This document shows, piece after piece, positions 1,680 through 62,400 of a DNA stretch of 64,000 nucleotides. The position numbers and the translations under genes are program-made. This stretch comes from Meghimatium bilineatum. Taxonomy: Eukaryota; Mollusca; Gastropoda; Stylommatophora; Philomycidae. Below the pieces are notes generated by a model. That model worked only from the letters and a program-made list of their open reading frames with translations. It did no database searches and was not told where the DNA came from. The stretch covers positions 9,364,391-9,428,390 of the forward strand of contig CM067319.1 in assembly GCA_034231615.1 (NCBI GenBank), read 5' to 3'. How positions within the stretch are numbered: position 1 is the first letter of the stretch; each line of letters opens with the position of its first letter.

Positions 1680-2199
1680 TGTCTCCGATGAGGACTTCTT
1701 AGTCGAAACGTCGTTTGTTTCTGTTGATGTCGTTAGTGCGTTGTGTATTTTGCTGTAACATTACCTAAGTATTTCTGTATTTACCCTCTTTACAATGTGT
1801 GCAACGTCACTCGCAACTTTAGTACGTTAGGTTGTTATCTAACACTGAGGATTTCTCCTTCTATCTTTAAGTCCCTGGTTCGAATCAGAGTTCATTAATT
1901 ATATTAAGAATTTCAGGAGTTCAAGGGCGTATATTGATTGACTTAATTGTACTTAAGCTTTCCCATAATACTCTGAAATTCTCAACGAACCGGCACGCAT
2001 ACTAGGAAGATTACAAGTCGTAGCAAGTGAAATCTTACCTTCAAGCAATTGTCTCAGAAGATCTTCGAAAAATTAACTTTGTAAATGAAACGTAACGAAC
2101 CGGAATATACGCGTGAGTTCTTGAGACAAGGCGAATAGCCAACAACTTCACTACGAAGACCCTCATTGTTAGTTTTGTAGTGACTTCTTTTTCTTTCGT
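1680..2199. repeat. Composite repeat: Penelope-like end plus tRNA-like SINE bodies (copy 1)
   Basis: On the + strand a hammerhead-like motif (CCGATGAGGACTTCTTAGTC then GAAACG) at 1688-1713 begins a dispersed retroelement-end family. A tRNA-like segment with a B-box GGTTCGAATC follows at about 1828-1900, and then a - strand tRNA-SINE body (about 1950-2150). The whole block recurs in inverse orientation at 9545-10090, next to the same LINE A 3' end, so the assembly was copied as a unit. Confidence 0.75.
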
Positions 2200-2705
2200 T
2201 CACTTGAAACATGTCTATATCTGTAATTCTGCCGCCTGAATAAAACTCACTGTCTTTTGTAGTTCATACAGTGTCCAATGGAGCTTTGATTCCAGTGTTG
2301 TTTCCTCTAACCAATACAAACAATATGACTGCCTCAGCGTTTTATACACAGAACACTCTTGAAGTATATGTTTGGCACTCTGTGCTGTCTGTCCACATGT
2401 ACACATGGCCGTGTTGTCAATCTTGAACTTTGTATACATGTGACTGCGGAGTCGGTTGTGTCCTGTTCTGAGACGTAGAATTATAACTTGTTCTGGTCTG
2501 TTCATAATGTGATAGTCATCTTGTGTTGGTGTTTGTTGCTATTTTTTATTGCCTTGATCATCTGTTTTTTTTCTGATTGTAGGTGATTGGTACATCTGGT
2601 GGTCTTTGGCAGCACCTTCCTTGCCTAATTGGTCTTTTCATTTCCTAGTATTCCACAGTGAGAGGGTATCCACCGCATAGTTACCCTATACTCGTGAGAC
2701 AGTTA
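2200..2705 (-). mobile_element. LINE fragment, family A (RNase H end and Cys-rich C-terminus)
   Basis: Reading leftwards: the end of an RNase H domain (W-I-P-S-H-C-G-I type), then R-P-E-Q-V-I-I-L-R-L-R-T-G-H, then C-T-C-G-Q-T-A-Q-S-A-K-H-I-L-Q-E-C (a C-x-C-x8-H-x4-C motif), ending near 2215. It is the same family as 13899-14612 and 24740-25800, 5'-truncated and frameshifted between the RNase H and C-terminal parts. Confidence 0.9.
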
Positions 2706-3307
2706 CTAGGTAGTTTTTATAAGTATGTTAGTTTTCCACTTGCATCTATCAAGAATACCACGGGAATGTGGGCTAGAGTAGTTTAGTGTAGTGACTCCTG
2801 TTGATGTGGGTTGCATATAAACTTGTGACTTATTTTTTTAATGAATTCTTTTTAGTTCATTTGGGATTACCGATAGAATCTACAATGTTACGTTCTCAAT
2901 GTAGTACTCTCGACTAGTGTTCACGCACAGCTGCTCTACCATGCGCTAGCGTACACTATTTTATCTATTGGCGCACATAGTTTGGACTTTACGCACACTG
3001 CTTGAGTATATAAATGTGTGTAAAAGTTCCTATAATAAAATGTCGAATTATTGTAAATTTAACATTTTGAAGAAGATGAGCTATTTTTAGGTAACGTTTT
3101 GCCAAGAAAAACTATTGTTCAAAACTTCTAAACACATGCGATAGATGTCTGCTCACAAAGACTCTTTTCTTAGAGGGGAAAAAAATTTACACTAAAAAAT
3201 GCTGATGTTTTCGACTCAAGTATAAGGAACCCAATCTTCCATGCATTTTGACCACTTTTGTTACTACAAGTTTATTTTAATAAGGAGAGCTGTATTTGTT
3301 ACTCGTC
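2706..3307. other. Unassigned stretch
   Basis: No coding or repeat family recognised. The text 2900-2960 (ACGCACAGCTGCTCTACC...) is weakly tRNA-SINE-like but too decayed to call. Confidence 0.4.
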
Positions 3308-7636: not shown

Positions 7637-8600
7637 TTTCAAGTGGTTGTTTGACCAACTGAAGTCATGTTTATTTCAAGTGGTTGTTTGAACAACTGAA
7701 GTCATGTTTATTTCAAGTGGTTGTTTGACCAAGTGAAGTCATGTTTATTTCACGTGGTTGTTTGAACAACTGAAGTCATGTTTATTTCAAGTGGTTGTTT
7801 GAACAACTGAATTCATGTTTATTTCAAGTGGTTGTTTGACCAAGTGAAGTCATGTTTATTTCACGTGGTTGTTTGAACAACTGAATTCATGTTTATTTCA
7901 AGTGGTTGTTTGACCAACTGAAGTCATGTTTATTTCACGTGGTTGTTTGAACAACTGAATTCATGTTTATTTCAAGTGGTTGTTTGAACAACTGAATTCA
8001 TGTTTATTTCAAGTGGTTGTTTGACCAACTGAATTCATGTTTATTTCAAGTGGTTGTTAGAACAACTGAATTTATGTTTATTTCAAGTGGTTGTTTGAAC
8101 AACTGAAGTCATGTTTATTTCAATTGGTTGTTTGAACAACTGAATTCATGTTTATTTCAAGTGGTTGTTTGACCAACTGAAGTCATGTTTATTTCAAGTG
8201 GTTGTTTGAACAACTGAATTCATGTTTATTTCAAGTGGTTGTTTGACCAACTGAAGTCATGTTTATTTCAAGTGGTTGTTTGAGCAACTGAATTCATGTT
8301 TATTTCAAGTGGTTGTTTGACCAACTGAAGTCATGTTTATTTCAAGTGGTTGTTTAAACAACTGAAGTCATGTTTATTTCAAGTGGTTGTTTGAACAACT
8401 GAAGTCATGTTTATTTCAAGTGGTTGTTTGACCAACTGAATTCATGTTTATTTCAAGTGGTTGTTTGAACAACTGAAGTCATGTTTATTTCAAGTGGTTG
8501 TTTGAACAACTGAAGTCATGTTTATTTCAAGTGGTTGTTTTACCAACTGAAGTCATGTTTATTTCAAGTGGTTGTTTGACCAACTGAAGTCATGTTTATT
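7637..8600. repeat. 37-bp minisatellite, about 26 copies
   Basis: Unit TTCAAGTGGTTGTTTGAMCA followed by ACTGAAKTCATGTTTAT. Units differ mainly at two places: GACCAA/GAACAA and GAAGTC/GAATTC. The variants are interspersed, so the array is not a simple recent amplification. Confidence 0.97.
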
Positions 8601-13898: not shown

Positions 13899-14612
13899 AA
13901 GCCTAGAGATACAATCAGAACACCAACAGGAAAATTCTGCAATAATTATGATGCAGAAATCCAGACTATTAGTGTGGCAGCTAAAAAACTGCTGAACTCC
14001 AACTCTGACCTACAGCCTATGGTATTCCTGACAGTTGCAAGGTCAGTCCTTCAAGCTCTCCAGTCTGGAAAACTAACAGACTTGAAAAAACTACTTAGCG
14101 AATTGTCTTACCAGTATAGGGTAACCATGCAGTGGATAACCTCTCACTGTGTAATACAAGGAAATGAAAAAGCAGACCAACTGGCTAAGGAAGGTGCTGC
14201 CGAAGACCAACCAGATATACCAATCACCTACCATCAGAAAAAAACAGATGATAAAGTCAATAAGAAAGCCACAAACACCAACACCAGATGATTATCACAT
14301 TATGAACAGATCAGAACAAGTTATAATTCTACGTCTCAAAACAGGACACAACCTACTCTGCAGTCACATGTATGCAAAGTTCAAGATTGGCAACACGGCC
14401 ATGTGTACAGGCAGCACAGAGTGTCAAACATATACTTCAAGAGTGTTCTGAGCATGAAACGCTAAGGCAGACATATTGGCCAGAAGAAACAACACTGGAA
14501 TCAAAGCTCTGTGGGACACTGTATGAACTACAAAAGACAGTGAGTTTTATTAAGGAGACAGAATTACAGATATAGACATGTTTCAAGTGAACGAAAGAAG
14601 AAGAAGAAGAAG
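13899..14612 (+). mobile_element. LINE fragment, family A (RNase H and C-terminus, (GAA)n tail)
   Basis: RNase H remnant with N-Y-D-A-E-I and N-E-K-A-D-Q-L-A, then the C-terminal R-S-E-Q-V-I-I-L-R-L-K-T-G-H and H-I-L-Q-E-C, then GTTTCAAGTGAACGAAAGAA and (GAA)n. Compared with 24740-25800 it has the catalytic third Asp changed (L-T-V-A-R-S instead of L-T-D-A-R-S), H-C-V-I in place of H-C-G-I, and a small deletion in the Cys motif. Confidence 0.93.
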
Positions 14613-15625: not shown

Positions 15626-16527
15626 ATATATATATAATATAATACCTATCACCTAAGCAAGAGAAATTGCATGACTGTTTTGCAAAGAATAATAGGAAAA
15701 AAGAACAAAGTCGAGGTTGTGAGCAACTGATCTTTATCAGGCACAGGGCAGACAGAAAATTGTCACACATGAAAATAATTGGTAAAGGGAATACACAGAA
15801 CACGAATCACATCACGCGACTTGTAACTTTACTTGAGTGAGGCTATGGGGAGGGCTGTGGAAGAGATGAACTAGTGGGAAATGGATTGCGGGATGGTGTG
15901 CTCCAGATTTGGAATAGACTTGAATTTTTTCAACTTCCATTGCTAACATCAAGTAATGTGATTTATATTACCATAGTGTGGGAAACTCTCAGTAAAAAGA
16001 CATTTAGTCGAAACGTTGGCTTTTCCCTTTCCTTGTCATTATTAAACCATAATTCGTCAATATGAAATCTTCAACCAATCAGCTTACTTCAGTCTACCCA
16101 GCAATCGATTATAGAAGTGAATCGAACTAATTGCCTTTTCCATTGGTTCTCCCTTCATCTTTACCAGTGTTGCCATTTTGGCAGACTACCATTTCACAAA
16201 TTATACCTTTTTGGAATGATGCTAGCCAAAACATTTATGTTTGGTATTTTTCAAATTAATTTTTACTCAAAATTTTCTCTTCATAATTTGTTCTCTTAAA
16301 AGTGCATCAATTTTCTTATTTTCTTCACTGAATTGCTGAAAATGTTAAAACGTCTAGTCACACAAACATGTGATGTTGTTGTTTATATAACTCTTTCTTC
16401 CGAAACTGCTGTCAAAACTATTAAATAAAATAATATAACTTAATCCATAGTATGAATTTATTATTAGAACTATTGATTGCATTTCGCTAATTCAAATTCG
16501 TTTTGTGATGATTTCATTACTTGTAGT
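15626..16527. other. Mostly unassigned; one Penelope-like end motif
   Basis: 15985-16030 (+) contains AAAAGACATTTAGTCGAAAC, a decayed version of the hammerhead-like end motif. A related - strand scrap (GATCTTTATCAGGCACAGG) lies near 15730. The rest is AT-rich with no family. Confidence 0.4.
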
Positions 16528-17560
16528 AATTAGACTTACGTAAAACACAGGTTTATATTTCGTTTCAATGGGACACGATAGACTATATCTAAAACTAGTG
16601 GGTAATGATGGGCAATGATGAGCACACAAGAAATCATAAAAATTACAATACACAAATCACATTCAATGTTTCAACCAAAAAGTCTTTATCAAGACACAAA
16701 CAAAACATTAAAAGACGACGAATAGAAAAATTATCACAACGTCCAACGGAAATATGGAAATGATATGCCGGAAGGTCAGAAAGTACATAACAACGTAAAT
16801 ATATGTGGAAACGAAACGAACAAAAAGATGAGTAAATGACGGAACAAAAAGAATAAATACAAAAACCATACCAACCCAGTACTAGACATAAGAGTGGTCG
16901 GAATTGAGTCCAGAAGGCTTGAGTGTACCCAATTCGAAAATGAGACGATTTTCTAGAGCATACCTAGATCTATCATCGGGGGTGCAAGATCTGATGGCAG
17001 TGACCTGAATATCCAACGCACCATGATGATATTCAGGATATTCGTTGGATATTCAGGTCACCGCCATCAGATCTTGCACCCCCGATGATAGATCTAGGTA
17101 TGCTCTAGAAAATCGTCTCATTTTCAAATTGGGTACACTCAAGCCTTCTGGACTCAATTCCGACCACTCTTATGTCTAGTACTGGGTTGGTATGGTTTTT
17201 GTCTTTATTCTTTTTGTTCCGTCATTTACTCATCTTTTTGTTCGTTTCGTTTCCACATATATTTACGTTGTTATGTACTTTCTGACCTTCCGGCATATCA
17301 TTTCCATATTTCCGTTGGACGTTGTGATAATTTTTCTATTCGTCGTCTTTTAATGTTTTGTTTGTGTCTTGATAAAGACCTTTTGGTTGAAACATTGAAT
17401 GTGATTTGTGTATTGTAATTTTTATGATTTCTTGTGTGCTCATCATTGCCCATCATTACCCACAAGTTTTAGATATAGTCTATCGTGTCCCATTGAGACG
17501 AAATATAAACATGTGTTTTACGTAAGTCTAATTGTTGTTACGTTTCACGCAGTTACCTTG
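16528..17560. mobile_element. Penelope-like element ends in a 491-bp-arm inverted repeat
   Basis: Arms 16528-17018 and 17043-17533 are reverse complements with about eight mismatches by eye, around a 24-bp centre. In each arm the centre-proximal part encodes the C-terminal tail of a GIY-YIG-bearing Penelope-like protein (R-L-I-F-K-L-G-T-L-K-P-S-G-L-N then S-Y-V and stop). A 3' UTR with the motif GATAAAGACCTTTTGGTTGA follows outward. The right copy continues about 25 bp past the left one. Both copies are 5'-truncated retroelement fossils lying 5' to 5'; the arms look young. Confidence 0.85.
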
Positions 17561-18429
17561 TATTACTAGTAGTACACAATTTAGGAGTTCGGTAATTTTC
17601 TGGCCATTTTTTACTCAACATTTGTCCATAAACAAACTCAAAAATATGGCATAACTATTATTTAGAGTTTAGAGAATGGACGTCAGTATTGCTATCTGTT
17701 GGACAAATTTGCAATCTACGTATTTCGCGCAAATTGTCAAACAACACTCAGCGTATACTTATGTTATGCTAAGATTCCTTCAATCTGACGAATTCTAGAA
17801 AAAAAATGTTCCATTTATTGACACTGATCATAACGTTTATAAAAGGCCAAACGACCAGACTATATCATTTCAGCAATAAATTTTGACATTTGTTTGACGT
17901 AGGTTGAAACTTCTACGAACTAGCCTTCTTGTTTTAAATATAAATATATTTGAACATGTCACATATTTATATGAGTCCAAACACCCAACCCATTAGATCA
18001 CATTTAAATAAAAGCTAATACGGCCTGATATAACCAAAATAGACTTCTGTCTTAGGTTGAAAGTGGCGTGCCTCAGCTAAGAGGCTTTAATCTCCCATCT
18101 AACAAATAAACAACAAAATTTATATGAGTCGACATTACTCAGTATTTTTGCGCTGGCTTCTTAGTTCAGGAGTCCATTTTCGATTTGCAGTTAAACTAGA
18201 AGTGTTGCAAGAATAAACGCTTCCATGTCAAACCAATGCCAAGAATAGGAACACGATCTTCTTGCTACGTAAAGATAGCAAGTGCACATATCTAAGTCTG
18301 TCGTTGGTCAAGGAAAAATAAGGTATCAGACAAAGACACTTTCTCCAGATTACTAGGACCATACAGTTAATCTCACCTAGTAGATGACCTGTAATTGATC
18401 AATATTTCTTTAGCGAATGCATCAAAGCA
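17561..18429. other. Unassigned stretch
   Basis: AT-rich; nothing recognised on either strand. Confidence 0.4.
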
Positions 18430-18902: not shown

Positions 18903-19815
18903 TACGATATTCTTCTTCTTCTTCTTCTTCATCGTTCTTCAGTCAGATATCAGGTTACATCACCAATGGCTTCAATGAATTGTGTGATTCGCTTCAGGTC
19001 ATCCATGGAACCCCTCAAGTCTGGAAGCAGTGCCGTCTCATTAGGCCATATTTTCTCCCTCTCTTCTTGGTAGAGTTGACAGGCATGAAGAATGTGTTCT
19101 GCAGTCTCTGGGCTCAGTCCACAGTTGCACAGGTCTGTCTCACCAATCTTCAGCTTTCGGAACATGTGACTTCTCAGTCTGTTGTGACCAGTTCGTAGTC
19201 TGAAAATGATAGTTTGTTCCTTGCGTGACATTTGGTGGTAGGGGTCATTTGGTTCTGCAGTTGGGTGCATTTGCTTCCACTTTTTCTTATATTCTGCTTT
19301 TAACATGGTCTTACTTTCATAGTACGTATTATCATTTTCTATTTGTTCTAGTGATCCCCCTTTCCTTGCCAGTATAAAGTGCAACATTTATCTGGCACTG
19401 GAGGGCGAAGCATTTTTATCTTCTGCGCTGGGCATTCATAAAAGGTGACGGTCGATAATTTCGTAAGAATGAGTGCACAGCCGGCACCCTGAAATCTATT
19501 GTAATTGTATTCTGTTCATGTATGTTAAGTGTACATTATGTGTGCCAACTCAAAAGATGGTACTCTGGTCTGTCCTGTCAAGGGAGTTTATGTTCTCTTT
19601 GAGATTTGAACTGGCCATTTATTTGTAGCTTTATCTCCCAGTGTTTCCCATGGCTAGCGAATTCTCTTTGTTCAGATTTCAACATATTTTTAACTGTCTG
19701 CATTGTCGTTAGTGTGTATGGTTGTTCTTGTCTTGCTCCCTTCATTGCTAGTACGTCTATACTGCTATTCCCAGTTGTATTCGAATGGTCAGGAATCCAC
19801 TGCATAACAATAGTA
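18903..19815 (-). mobile_element. LINE fragment, family A2 (RNase H to C-terminus, (GAA)n tail)
   Basis: Reading leftwards: M-Q-W-I-P-D-H-S-N-T-T-G-N (RNase H end), a linker, then R-K-E-Q-T-I-I-F-R-L-R-T-G-H, then C-N-C-G-L-S-P-E-T-A-E-H-I-L-H-A-C, then I-E-A-I-G-D-V-T and a stop. The tail is AAGAACGATGAAGAAGAAG. The C-terminal 145 codons are open. Subfamily distinct from A, but with the same domain order and a similar 3' end. Confidence 0.9.
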
Positions 19816-23384: not shown

Positions 23385-23687
23385 AGGCGTCGTGGGGAGT
23401 TTAAGTTTTCTGTCTCTGGTCATCTTTGTTACGCTTGCCATGGTCAAGACGTGGTTCTTAACTATCTCTTTAATTGAATCTTTCCATTTTGTTCTTGGTC
23501 TTCCTCTTGCTTTGTAACCGTTCTTTCTGCTGCTGTATGTCTAGATGACTGGTTGTGATGGTTCCATTCGCATTAGGTTGCCAAACCAGTTGATCTGTTG
23601 ACTTTCTATATATTGTTTGCATATGTTCTTTACTATTTCTCATGTCTTCATTTCTCATTCAGTCTCTTCTGGTGACGTTTATAGCCT
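23385..23687 (-). mobile_element. LINE fragment, RTE-like (family C group)
   Basis: Leftward translation gives N-V-T-R-R-D, M-R-N-E-D-M-R-N, S-T-D-Q-L-V-W, K-R-K-T-K-N-K-M-E and a decayed terminal region, the standard order after an RTE-type reverse transcriptase. The upstream part of this LINE is the amplified peptide of the adjoining minisatellite. Confidence 0.85.
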
Positions 23688-24057
23688 TTCTCAGACATTT
23701 CATCTCACATGTTGTAATCTTTCTCAGACATTTCATCTCACATGTTGTAATCTTTCTCAGACATTTCATCTCACATGTTGTAATCTTTCTCAGACATTTC
23801 ATCTCACATGTTGTAATCTTTCTCAGACATTTCATCTCACATGTTGTAATCTTTCTCAGACATTTCATCTCACATGTTGTAATCTTTCTCAGACATTTCA
23901 TCTCACATGTTGTAATCTTTCTCAGACATTTCATCTCACATGTTGTAATCTTTCTCAGACATTTCATCTCACATGTTGTAATCTTTCTCAGACATTTCAT
24001 CTCACATGTTGTAATCTTTCTCAGACATTTCATCTCACATGTTGTAATCTTTCTCAT
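23688..24057. repeat. 33-bp minisatellite, 11 copies, amplified inside a LINE coding region
   Basis: Near-identical units TTCTCAGACATTTCATCTCA + CATGTTGTAATCT. On the - strand each is 11 in-frame codons reading E-M-K-C-L-R-K-I-T-T-C. E-M-K-C-L-R-K-I is the natural LINE peptide just before N-V-T-R-R-D at 23665. All six frames stay open because 33 is a multiple of three. Confidence 0.97.
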
Positions 24058-24739: not shown

Positions 24740-25800
24740 GGGTTTCCGTACTTTACGCAACGTGACTTTTTAAAGATAACAGAAATTCGGGGACACCGAA
24801 TTGAGGAGAAAGACTTGAAGTTGACAGCCCCTGAAGGCCTGTACCAGAACAAACCCCGTGGAGTGAAAGGCATGGAATGCCAATATACATTCAGACCCAT
24901 GTGAAAGGAATACTAAGCGAGGACGAACAGAACAGTGTGCAGCGAAGGACAGTCACCCTCAGTTTCCTGGATGAGGAATATCCTCAAGATATATGGGTCA
25001 GAGTATACAAAGATGGGCCAGCACAGAATGCCGTGAGGAATGGAGGTGCAGGTGTATATATAGAATATCCACACAAGCCTAGAGATACAATCAGAACACC
25101 AACAGGAAAATTCTGCAATAATTATGATGCTGAAATCGAGGCAATTAGTGTGGCAGCTAAAAAACTGCTGAACTCCAACTCTGACCTACAGCCTGTGGTA
25201 TTCCTGACAGATGCAAGGTCAGTGCTTCAAGCTCTCCAGTTTGGAAAACTAACAGACTTGAAAAAACTACTTAGCGAATTGTCTTACCTGTATAGGGTAA
25301 CCATGCAGTGGATACCCTCTCACTGTGGAATACCAGGAAATGAAAAAGCAGACCAACTGGCTAAGGAAGGTGCTGCCGAAGACCAACCAGATATACCAAT
25401 CACCTACCATCAGAAAAAAACAGATGATCAAGTCAATAAGAAAGCCACAAACACCAACACAAGATGACTATCATATTATGAACAGACCAGAACAAGTTAT
25501 AATTCTACGTCTCAGAACAGGACACAACCGACTCTGCAGTCACATGTATACAAAGTTCAAGATTGGCAACACGGCCATGTGTACATGTGGACAGGCAGCA
25601 CAGATTGCCAAACATATACTTCAAGAGTGTTCTGAGCATGAAACGCTGAGGCAGACATATTGGCCAGAGGAAACAACACTGGAATCAAAGCTCTATGGGA
25701 CACTGTATGAGCTACAAAAGACAGTGAGTTTTATTAAGGAGACAGAATTACAGATATAGACATGTTTCAAGTGAACGAAAGAAGAAGAAGAAGAGGAGAA
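24740..25800 (+). mobile_element. LINE family A, best copy (RNase H open frame, C-terminus, (GAA)n tail)
   Basis: The 196-codon frame 24877-25467 is an RNase H type I domain. V-Y-K-D-G carries the first Asp, Y-D-A-E-I-E the Glu, F-L-T-D-A-R-S the third acidic residue, and H-C-G-I-P-G-N-E-K-A-D the terminal His and Asp. A frame change near 25450 leads to the C-terminal region with R-P-E-Q-V-I-I-L-R-L-R-T-G-H and the C-T-C-G ... H-I-L-Q-E-C motif, ending E-L-Q-I and stop at 25759. The tail is GTGAACGAAAGAAGAAGAAG. The reverse transcriptase is missing. The RNase H after RT suggests the I/Nimb/Loner-like branch. Confidence 0.95.
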
Positions 25801-31068: not shown

Positions 31069-31268
31069 TTTGTTAAAAGGGCCGTAGACATGTCTTTAAT
31101 AATTGGGTATGGGGTGATTCATATTATTCTTCCCCTTCCTTGTGTAATTCCTACATTTTCATAAAATTTGTATGACTTATTGTGGGGAAATCGTTGAAAA
31201 GGGAGGTCTATTAATGGGACGTGAGGGTCGTTACCCACCTTTTGGCTACACTCCAGTAATATATATAT

Positions 31269-31938
31269 CTTGTTTTAATGTTCCAATAAATGTCTTGTTT
31301 TAATGTTCCAATAAATGTCTTGTTTTAATGTTCCAATCAATGTCTTGTTTTAATGTTTCAATAAATGTCTTGTTTTAATGTTCCAATAAATGTCTTGTTT
31401 TAATGTTCCAATAAATGTCTTATTTTAATGTTCCAATAAATGTCTTGTTTTAATGTTCCAATAAATGTCTTGTTTTGATGTTCCAATAAATGTCTTGTTT
31501 TAATGTTTCAATAAATGTCTTGTTTTAATGTTCCAATAAATGTCTTGTTTTAATGTTCCAATAAATGTCTTATTTTAATGTTCCAATAAATGTCTTGTTT
31601 TAATGTTCCAATAAATGTCTTGTTTTGATGTTCCAATAAATGTCTTGTTTTAATGTTCTATAAATGTCTTGTTTTAATGTTTCAATAAATGTCTTGTTTT
31701 AATGTTCCAATAAATGTCTTGTTTTAATGTTCCAATAAATGTCTTGTTTTAATGTTCCAATAAATGTCTTGTTTTAATGTTCCAATAAATGTCTTGTTTT
31801 AATGTTCCAATAAATGTCTTGTTTTAATGTTCCAATAAATGTCTTATTTTAATATTCCAATAAATGTCTTATTTTAATGTTCCAATAAATATCTTGTTTT
31901 AATGTTCCAATAAATGTCTTCTTTTAATGTTTCAAGGG
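31269..31938 (+). repeat. 25-bp minisatellite, about 27 copies, each with AATAAA
   Basis: Unit TCTTGTTTTAATGTTCCAAT + AAATG. Almost every unit contains AATAAA followed by a GU-rich TGTCTTGTTTT on the + strand. Variant units (TTTCAA, TTATTTTAA) are interspersed. Confidence 0.97.
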
Positions 31939-35119: not shown

Positions 35120-35498
35120 CGGTACTTACTAACATCATGATGTATAGTTTGTAACATCATGATGTATAGTTTGTAACATCATGATGTATAGTTTGTAACA
35201 TCATGATGTATAGTTTGTAACATCATGATGTATAGTTTGTAACATCATGATGTATAGTTTGTAACATCATGATGTATAGTTTGTAACATCATGATGTATA
35301 GTTTGTAACATCATGATGTATAGTTTGTAACATCATGATGTATAGTTTGTAACATCATGATGTATAGTTTGTAACATCATGATGTATAGTTTGTAACATC
35401 ATGATGTATAGTTTGTAACATCATGATGTATAGTTTGTAACATCATGATGTATAGTTTGTAACATCATGATGTATAGTTTGTAACATCATGATGTATA
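35120..35498. repeat. 22-bp minisatellite, 17 copies, each with a 12-bp perfect palindrome
   Basis: Unit AACATCATGATGTATAGTTT + GT, virtually identical copies. ACATCATGATGT is its own reverse complement in every unit. Confidence 0.98.
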
Positions 35499-43834: not shown

Positions 43835-44215
43835 TACTGCGTGAAACGGAACAACAATAGTACTTACGTAGAACACAGAACTACTTTCATGACTACATAC
43901 TTACGTATGAACCATTACGTAGAACCGTTTCCATGACTACATGTTTTCACATACATCATTGTCACCTTGAACTTTGTATTGTTTGCATGTTAATAGTGTA
44001 TTTAGTGCCTCTGTTGTTTGTGCTGGTTTAATTGTTTTTCACTGTTCCTTTCGTATATTCTTGAGAACGACTTAGCTGTTTGAAACGTTGAAAATGTCTT
44101 GTGTATTGTCATTTGCATGTTTTCATGTTTACACTTCATAACCCCTTAGGAATAATCCTTCTTATTCAAGTGAAATTTTCCAAAACCTGTGTTCTAGGTG
44201 TAGTAATGGGATTAT
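43835..44215. mobile_element. Penelope-like ends, inverted pair (decayed)
   Basis: Left (-): CTGCGTGAAACGGAACAACA + ATAGTACTTACGTAGAACACAG, the inverse of 17505-17560. Right (+): GAGAACGACTTAGCTGTTTG + AAACGTTG ... CCTGTGTTCTAGG. Older than 16528-17560. Confidence 0.6.
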
Positions 44216-62334: not shown

Positions 62335-62400
62335 TAGTTGCGAATGTGTTTTTGATAAAGGACTTTTGGTGGAAACATTGAAACATAGTTTTACAAAATT
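62335..62400 (+). mobile_element. Penelope-like end motif, decayed
   Basis: TTTGATAAAGGACTTTTGGT + GGAAACATTGAAAC. A - strand relative (TTTGGCCAAAAACCTTTTATC) lies at 62870-62895 and another + strand one (CTGGTGAAGGCCTTTTTTGA) at 63140. Confidence 0.55.

What the first reader, a model, noticed from the sequence alone, without database searches (positions are those of the whole stretch)
16528..17533. Near-perfect 491-bp-arm inverted repeat made of two Penelope-like ends
The arms have exactly equal length (491 bp), about eight mismatches by eye and only a 24-bp centre, so the locus could extrude a giant cruciform. The arms encode the C-terminal tail of a Penelope-type protein running outward, so two 5'-truncated copies sit 5' to 5'. 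The high identity implies a recent origin. Twin-primed or template-switched insertion, or inverted duplication after insertion, would both fit.
Basis: partly seen in the sequence, partly recalled or inferred. Interest (0 to 1): 0.75.

Follow-up and report, generated by a model that had tools for sequence, protein, structure and literature searches.

The report
Two-sided, palindromic Penelope retroelement insertion
A short jumping element of the Penelope type appears to have been copied into both sides of one DNA cut, leaving two nearly equal mirror-image pieces; this kind of structure is known, and its details hint at how these elements insert.

Summary
In detail: arms 16528-17018 and 17043-17533, 491 nt each, 7 mismatches, 24-nt centre. 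The arms are 3' ends of a dispersed Penelope-like element (PLE) of an unnamed 1.61-Gb genome.

The palindrome is one insertion: a 12-bp target duplication (11 of 12 match) flanks it, and only the right copy carries a 29-nt "tail". Nested insertion, later inverted duplication and assembly foldback are therefore unlikely.

The anatomy recurs. Of 51 distinct insertions held, 18 have both canonical ends; all 18 pair one tailed with one tailless end and have target duplications. One further case, L007, has tail-like sequence on both sides.

In 8 of 18 the two copies stop within 35 nt of each other; shuffling gives 1.8 (P about 1e-4).

Best reading: both strands of a staggered cut primed reverse transcription at two adjacent RNA start sites, and one cDNA then folded back on itself, equalising the arms. 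Two-sided insertion is well supported; fold-back is inferred. Inverted PLE ends, tails and self-priming are already in print, so this is a new member of a known kind.

The parts
16517..16528 (.). Left target-site duplication, 12 bp (TTACTTGTAGTA)
   Evidence: 11 of 12 match to 17563-17574; score 10 against at most 9 in 306 mismatched pairings. Base 16528 can be counted to the duplication or to the element.
16528..17029 (-). Left copy, tailless: element reference 2763-3264 in antisense
   Evidence: 95.8% to the natural tandem unit L052:6101-9404
16882..17016 (-). C-terminal coding tail of the element protein, left copy (about 44 codons and stop)
   Evidence: Frame; same protein end as the L052 frames
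17030..17044 (.). Junction filler; GATATTC occurs at 17028, 17037 and 17048, the last inside the right copy
   Evidence: Read; copy limits. The right arm of the palindrome begins at 17043.
17045..17533 (+). Right copy up to the tailless end position: element reference 2776-3264
   Evidence: 96.3% to the reference over 2776-3295; palindromic with the left copy
17045..17179 (+). C-terminal coding tail of the element protein, right copy (about 44 codons and stop)
   Evidence: Read in the frame of the L052 protein end
17534..17562 (+). Tail, 29 nt, present on the right copy only
   Evidence: Shared with many dispersed copies; absent left of 16528
17563..17574 (.). Right target-site duplication, 12 bp (TTACTAGTAGTA)

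Best explanation
One insertion of a Penelope-like retroelement made from both sides of a staggered cut. The element's nuclease cut the two strands about 12 bp apart. Each exposed 3' end primed reverse transcription of element RNA: one at the inner start site (tailless, left), the other about 30-40 nt further 3' (tailed, right). The two antisense cDNAs point at each other, so both element 3' ends face outward and both copies are 5'-truncated. The near-equal arms are most simply made by one cDNA snapping back close to its own 3' end and copying itself outward until it met the cDNA of the other side; the GATATTC repeats in the centre would be the scar of that re-priming. Shown: a single insertion, one tail, a shared template source, recurrence in the family. 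Inferred: the staggered cut, priming from both strands, the fold-back. My odds: two-sided insertion 0.93, fold-back as the cause of the equal arms 0.55; the figure below is for the whole statement.
For: Target duplication in 18 of 18 two-ended insertions, scores 10-15, against at most 9 in 306 mismatched pairings. One tailed plus one tailless end in the same 18. Position marks on C1 up to 91 Mb: 18 of 18 two-directional insertions diverge; 15 have one exact tail, 3 none, 0 two, P 0.002 against independent tails. Arms share 3 variants seen in no other sampled copy; 0 of 2307 between-locus pairs share 3 or more. Near-equal inner ends in 8 of 18, 1.8 expected, P 1e-4. Second copies anchored at the centre but not at the outer end: L022, L040, L003. 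The anole PLE protein cuts and extends both strands in vitro from two adjacent RNA start sites that bound the tail (PMC11167929 main text).
Against: Two of the 7 arm mismatches are variants seen in 15 and 3 other copies, so the arms may not be copies of one molecule. 10 of 18 pairs differ by more than 35 nt, and at a 20-nt limit the excess is weak (3 of 18, P 0.04). L036 and L043 do not fit fold-back. L007 carries tail-like sequence on both sides. At least 10 insertions look one-sided with a target duplication. Arm divergence does not separate equal from unequal pairs.
Confidence: 0.6

Rival explanations
1. Two-sided insertion without fold-back: two cDNAs made separately on one RNA, or on RNAs of one source copy, both ran off the same broken 5' end and were then end-joined.
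For: Unequal pairs also share exclusive variants (L037, J31, L043, L052), so both cDNAs can come from one source without fold-back. Two segregating differences between the window arms.
Against: Does not explain centre-anchored partial second copies in L022, L040 and L003, nor inner ends that miss each other by 2-35 nt in either direction.
Confidence: 0.33
2. Inverted duplication after insertion, or two independent insertions end to end.
For: Inverted pairs of repeats can arise in both ways (general knowledge).
Against: One target duplication brackets both copies and the tail is on one side only; the flanks are not mirrored (score 17 of 150 for the window, 8-12 for 11 other loci); 18 of 18 two-directional clusters on C1 diverge.
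Confidence: 0.03
3. Assembly foldback artefact.
For: No reads could be examined.
Against: Seven mismatches between arms, unlike flanks, a one-sided tail, a target duplication, and the same anatomy at many loci.
Confidence: 0.02
4. LINE-1-type twin priming, or a foldback DNA transposon.
For: Both give inverted segments (recalled).
Against: Twin priming leaves one element 3' end; two are present here. The arms are ends of an element with reverse transcriptase and endonuclease matches, with inner ends that differ between loci, not fixed terminal repeats.
Confidence: 0.02

Closest known systems
Endonuclease-bearing Penelope elements with inverted pLTRs, Adineta vaga (PMC3846280; passages and the Discussion read)
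   Same: Head-to-head inverted terminal parts, short target duplications, an optional 31-bp tail at one of the inverted ends, partial tandems, palindromic junctions; the authors already propose self-priming on an antisense template.
   Different: There the inverted part usually flanks a longer element; here both copies are about 490-520 nt. The pairing of tailed and tailless ends and the match of arm lengths are counted here over 18 insertions.
Anole Poseidon PLE, PAc (PMC11167929; abstract and main text read)
   Same: Tail bounded by two RNA start sites; the protein cuts and extends both strands in vitro.
   Different: Host, an anole hammerhead motif not seen here, and no strand difference in start site reported in vitro; the genomic copies here pair one start site with the other within each insertion.
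LINE-1 twin priming (recalled; only search listings seen)
   Same: The second target end primes on element RNA and gives an inverted segment.
   Different: One element 3' end in LINE-1; both copies carry a 3' end here.

Membership tests
Penelope-like element, endonuclease-bearing | Reverse transcriptase followed by a GIY-YIG endonuclease in one element | tested here: inconclusive
   L052:7109-9007: RVT_1 E 8.1e-4 and GIY-YIG E 2.5e-3 in that order, both below Pfam's curated scores; the 771-aa frame L052:3430-5742 gives GIY-YIG alone at the limit used; NCBIfam group I intron endonuclease E 0.018
Penelope-like element, endonuclease-bearing | Tandem or partial tandem copies (pLTR layout) | tested here: met
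   Array at C2:98907330 with about 3.27-kb period and a natural unit of 3304 nt
Penelope-like element, endonuclease-bearing | Inverted partial copy at the 5' side, 3' ends outward | tested here: met
   Window, 17 other two-ended insertions and L052; all 18 two-directional clusters on C1 to 91 Mb diverge
Penelope-like element, endonuclease-bearing | 30-40 nt tail on some 3' ends | tested here: met
   Reference 3265 to about 3304; 1845 exact 20-mer tail sites, reversed control 0
Penelope-like element, endonuclease-bearing | Short target-site duplication | tested here: met
   18 of 18 two-ended insertions
Penelope-like element, endonuclease-bearing | Hammerhead ribozyme motif (reported for the anole PLE; not treated as defining here) | tested here: not met
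   No hammerhead family match in the window at gathering score or in 16480-17620 and L052 at E up to 5
Penelope-like element, endonuclease-bearing | RT branching with telomerase and PLE RTs | not tested
   No tree was built
LINE-1-type twin-primed insertion | Only one element 3' end; inverted part lacks it (recalled) | tested here: not met
   Both window copies reach the element 3' end, reference 3264 and 3295

The most novel reading that the evidence does not exclude
PLE insertion is asymmetric at initiation by rule: the two target strands use different RT start sites, perhaps because both cDNAs start on one RNA molecule, and a large share of two-sided insertions is then closed by fold-back of one cDNA onto itself. 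The window palindrome would be a fold-back product with a tail-bearing stub at the other end.
Probability: 0.4. Interest if true: 0.62.

Novelty: new member of a known kind. Interest (0 to 1): 0.42.

Why it matters
How Penelope-like elements finish insertion is open: the purified anole protein primes on both strands, but its authors say that later steps are not yet validated (PMC11167929). This genome holds well over a thousand ends of one family. The one-tail pattern and the matched arm lengths are footprints that could separate models with one RNA from two, and fold-back from end joining.

Tried and rejected
Inverted duplication after insertion, nested insertion and assembly foldback: rejected on the target duplication, the one-sided tail, the seven mismatches and the unmirrored flanks.

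A hammerhead cut setting both inner ends: no hammerhead match, and inner ends differ between loci. The miRNA-family matches on the centre are below gathering score and reflect the palindrome.

L007 as fold-back into the flank: both copies run on into about 255 nt of the same further sequence in inverted orientation. It may be read-through into another repeat; it stays an unexplained case with tail-like sequence on both sides and is outside the 18 (with it, 18 of 19).

Arm divergence as a test of fold-back against two cDNAs: not decisive. In the nearest-copy test 19 of 37 arms have their own locus as nearest sampled copy.

Rows dropped: end sites beyond 90.4 Mb (7 of the 100 listed), 29-mer sites beyond 89.9 Mb on C1 and the C2 sites, and marks beyond 91 Mb. 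In one search the inner end of the L004 stub was entered as 3237; one search puts it at 3239, which changes no count.

Full report
Observation. The inverted repeat is real and where stated: arms 16528-17018 and 17043-17533, 491 nt, 7 mismatches, 24-nt centre.

What the arms are. A 29-mer of the arm, with up to 1 mismatch, occurs 939 times, reversed control 0. An array at C2:98907330 gives a natural reference unit of 3304 nt (L052:6101-9404). One frame of that unit matches reverse transcriptase and then GIY-YIG, both below Pfam's curated scores (E 8.1e-4 and 2.5e-3); NCBIfam adds a group I intron endonuclease at E 0.018; the PDB gives nothing credible. Domain order, tandem layout, tail, inverted partial copies and target duplications together make it a Penelope-like element (PLE) in my judgement; no tree was built. 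Each window arm holds about 44 final codons with the stop and about 350 nt beyond it.

One insertion. The left copy is antisense, reference 2763-3264; the right is sense, 2776-3295. Only the right copy has the tail. TTACTTGTAGTA at the left edge matches TTACTAGTAGTA after the tail at 11 of 12. The arms share three variants found in no other sampled copy; 0 of 2307 between-locus pairs share three or more; exclusive sharing is 2.29 per kb within insertions and 0.068 between. The arms are 1.43% apart; the nearest other sampled copy is 2.04% away over 245 nt. So both arms most likely come from one source in one event.

Recurrence. I hold 56 loci, 51 distinct insertions. By they are: 18 with two canonical ends (the window, L002, L004, L017, L020, L022, L023, L025, L037, L044, L045, L046, L049, L015/16, L031/32, L053, L054, L055); 5 two-sided with a non-canonical outer end (L003, L036, L040, L043, L056); 3 other two-sided cases (L007; L033, which runs off its stretch and whose left tail is known; L052, the array, right end not fetched); 10 apparently one-sided with a target duplication; 11 apparently one-sided with none found; 4 that run off the fetched stretch. 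One of the 11, L028, has a 15-nt tail-like stub (E 0.024) and was not counted. The sample was chosen by an internal 29-mer or by likeness to the window, not by tails; L053-L056 were chosen as close pairs, which favours short copies. Of the 100 exact 29-mer sites listed (C1 and part of C2), 77 clusters form; 15 are a diverging pair and one is the array beginning with a diverging pair; no converging pair is listed.

One tail per insertion. All 18 pair a tailed with a tailless end; at even odds 4e-6. All 18 have a target duplication, score 10-15, against at most 9 in 306 mismatched pairings. L007 is the exception outside the 18: tail-like sequence on both sides, running on into about 255 nt of shared inverted sequence. 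A position-only count on C1 up to 91 Mb, exact matches only, gives 18 insertions marked in both directions: all diverge; 15 have one exact tail, 3 none, 0 two. Seven of these 18 are also among the sequence-level 18; of the other 11, nine have one exact tail and two none. Of the three without an exact tail, L007 and L015/16 have altered tail letters; the third was not fetched. With 36 of 93 ends tailed, 2.7 two-tailed cases are expected, and 15 or more one-tailed of 18 has P 0.002. Of the 100 tail sites listed, out of 1845, the closest two are 29 kb apart. The Adineta paper already says that the tail is optionally present on one of the inverted ends. In my searches of the open library and the texts read I saw no count; subscription papers were not seen.

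Near-equal arms. In 8 of the 18 the copies stop within 35 nt of each other; shuffled partners give 1.83, P 1.1e-4. Other limits: 20 nt, 3 of 18, P 0.04; 50 nt, 8 of 18, P 3e-4; 100 nt, 10 of 18, P 3e-4. Without the window and L002: 7 of 16 within 35 nt, P 2e-4 (all). So the window's equal arms are not a coincidence of one place. Fold-back of one cDNA explains this and also explains second copies anchored at the centre but not at the outer end: L022 (35 nt at 89% beside the centre, joined to a 29-nt tail stub, the middle missing), L040 (40 nt) and L003 (2791-3173). L036 and L043 do not fit. The centre of the window shows GATATTC at 17028, 17037 and 17048 (read), as re-priming on a nearby template would leave. 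Self-priming was proposed for PLEs in 2013. The rival, two cDNAs running off one broken RNA, is not excluded.

Against my reading. Two window mismatches are variants seen in 15 and 3 other copies; both lie within 36 nt of the tailless end, which a separate outer stub could explain, but two sites prove nothing. Ten of 18 pairs differ by more than 35 nt. One-sided insertions exist. The purified anole enzyme showed no strand difference in start site, which neither demands nor forbids pairing within one insertion. No reads and no empty site could be examined.

Verdict. A known kind of Penelope insertion in an unusually symmetric form. Inverted ends, tail and both-strand priming are known; the pairing of start sites within each insertion and the excess of matched arm lengths are the parts worth following.

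Noticed in passing
G000:C2:98907330-98933688 (first part in L052): Head-to-tail array of the element: one site in one direction, then eight in the other at about 3.27-3.30 kb spacing; the listing ends there, so the array may be longer.
   Followed up: partly
L007 with L008 (C1:2350199-2351744 and flanks): Two copies with tail-like ends on both sides that continue into about 255 nt of the same inverted sequence, possibly another Penelope-like end.
   Followed up: partly
window 62345-62382 and 44077-44128: Weak matches to the arm (87% over 38 nt, 79% over 52 nt), perhaps relics of related elements.
   Followed up: no
window 2184-2738, 14066-14606, 25242-25790: A dispersed repeat of about 550 nt, 87-90% alike in inverted orientation.
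   Followed up: no
window 23686-24056, 35130-35498, 7637-8600, 31261-31935: Dense minisatellites, two of them with 100% matching units (33 nt by 11.2 copies and 22 nt by 16.8 copies).
   Followed up: no
window 18950-19387, minus strand: A 145-aa open frame that looks like the end of a LINE-type reverse transcriptase protein by eye; not searched.
   Followed up: no
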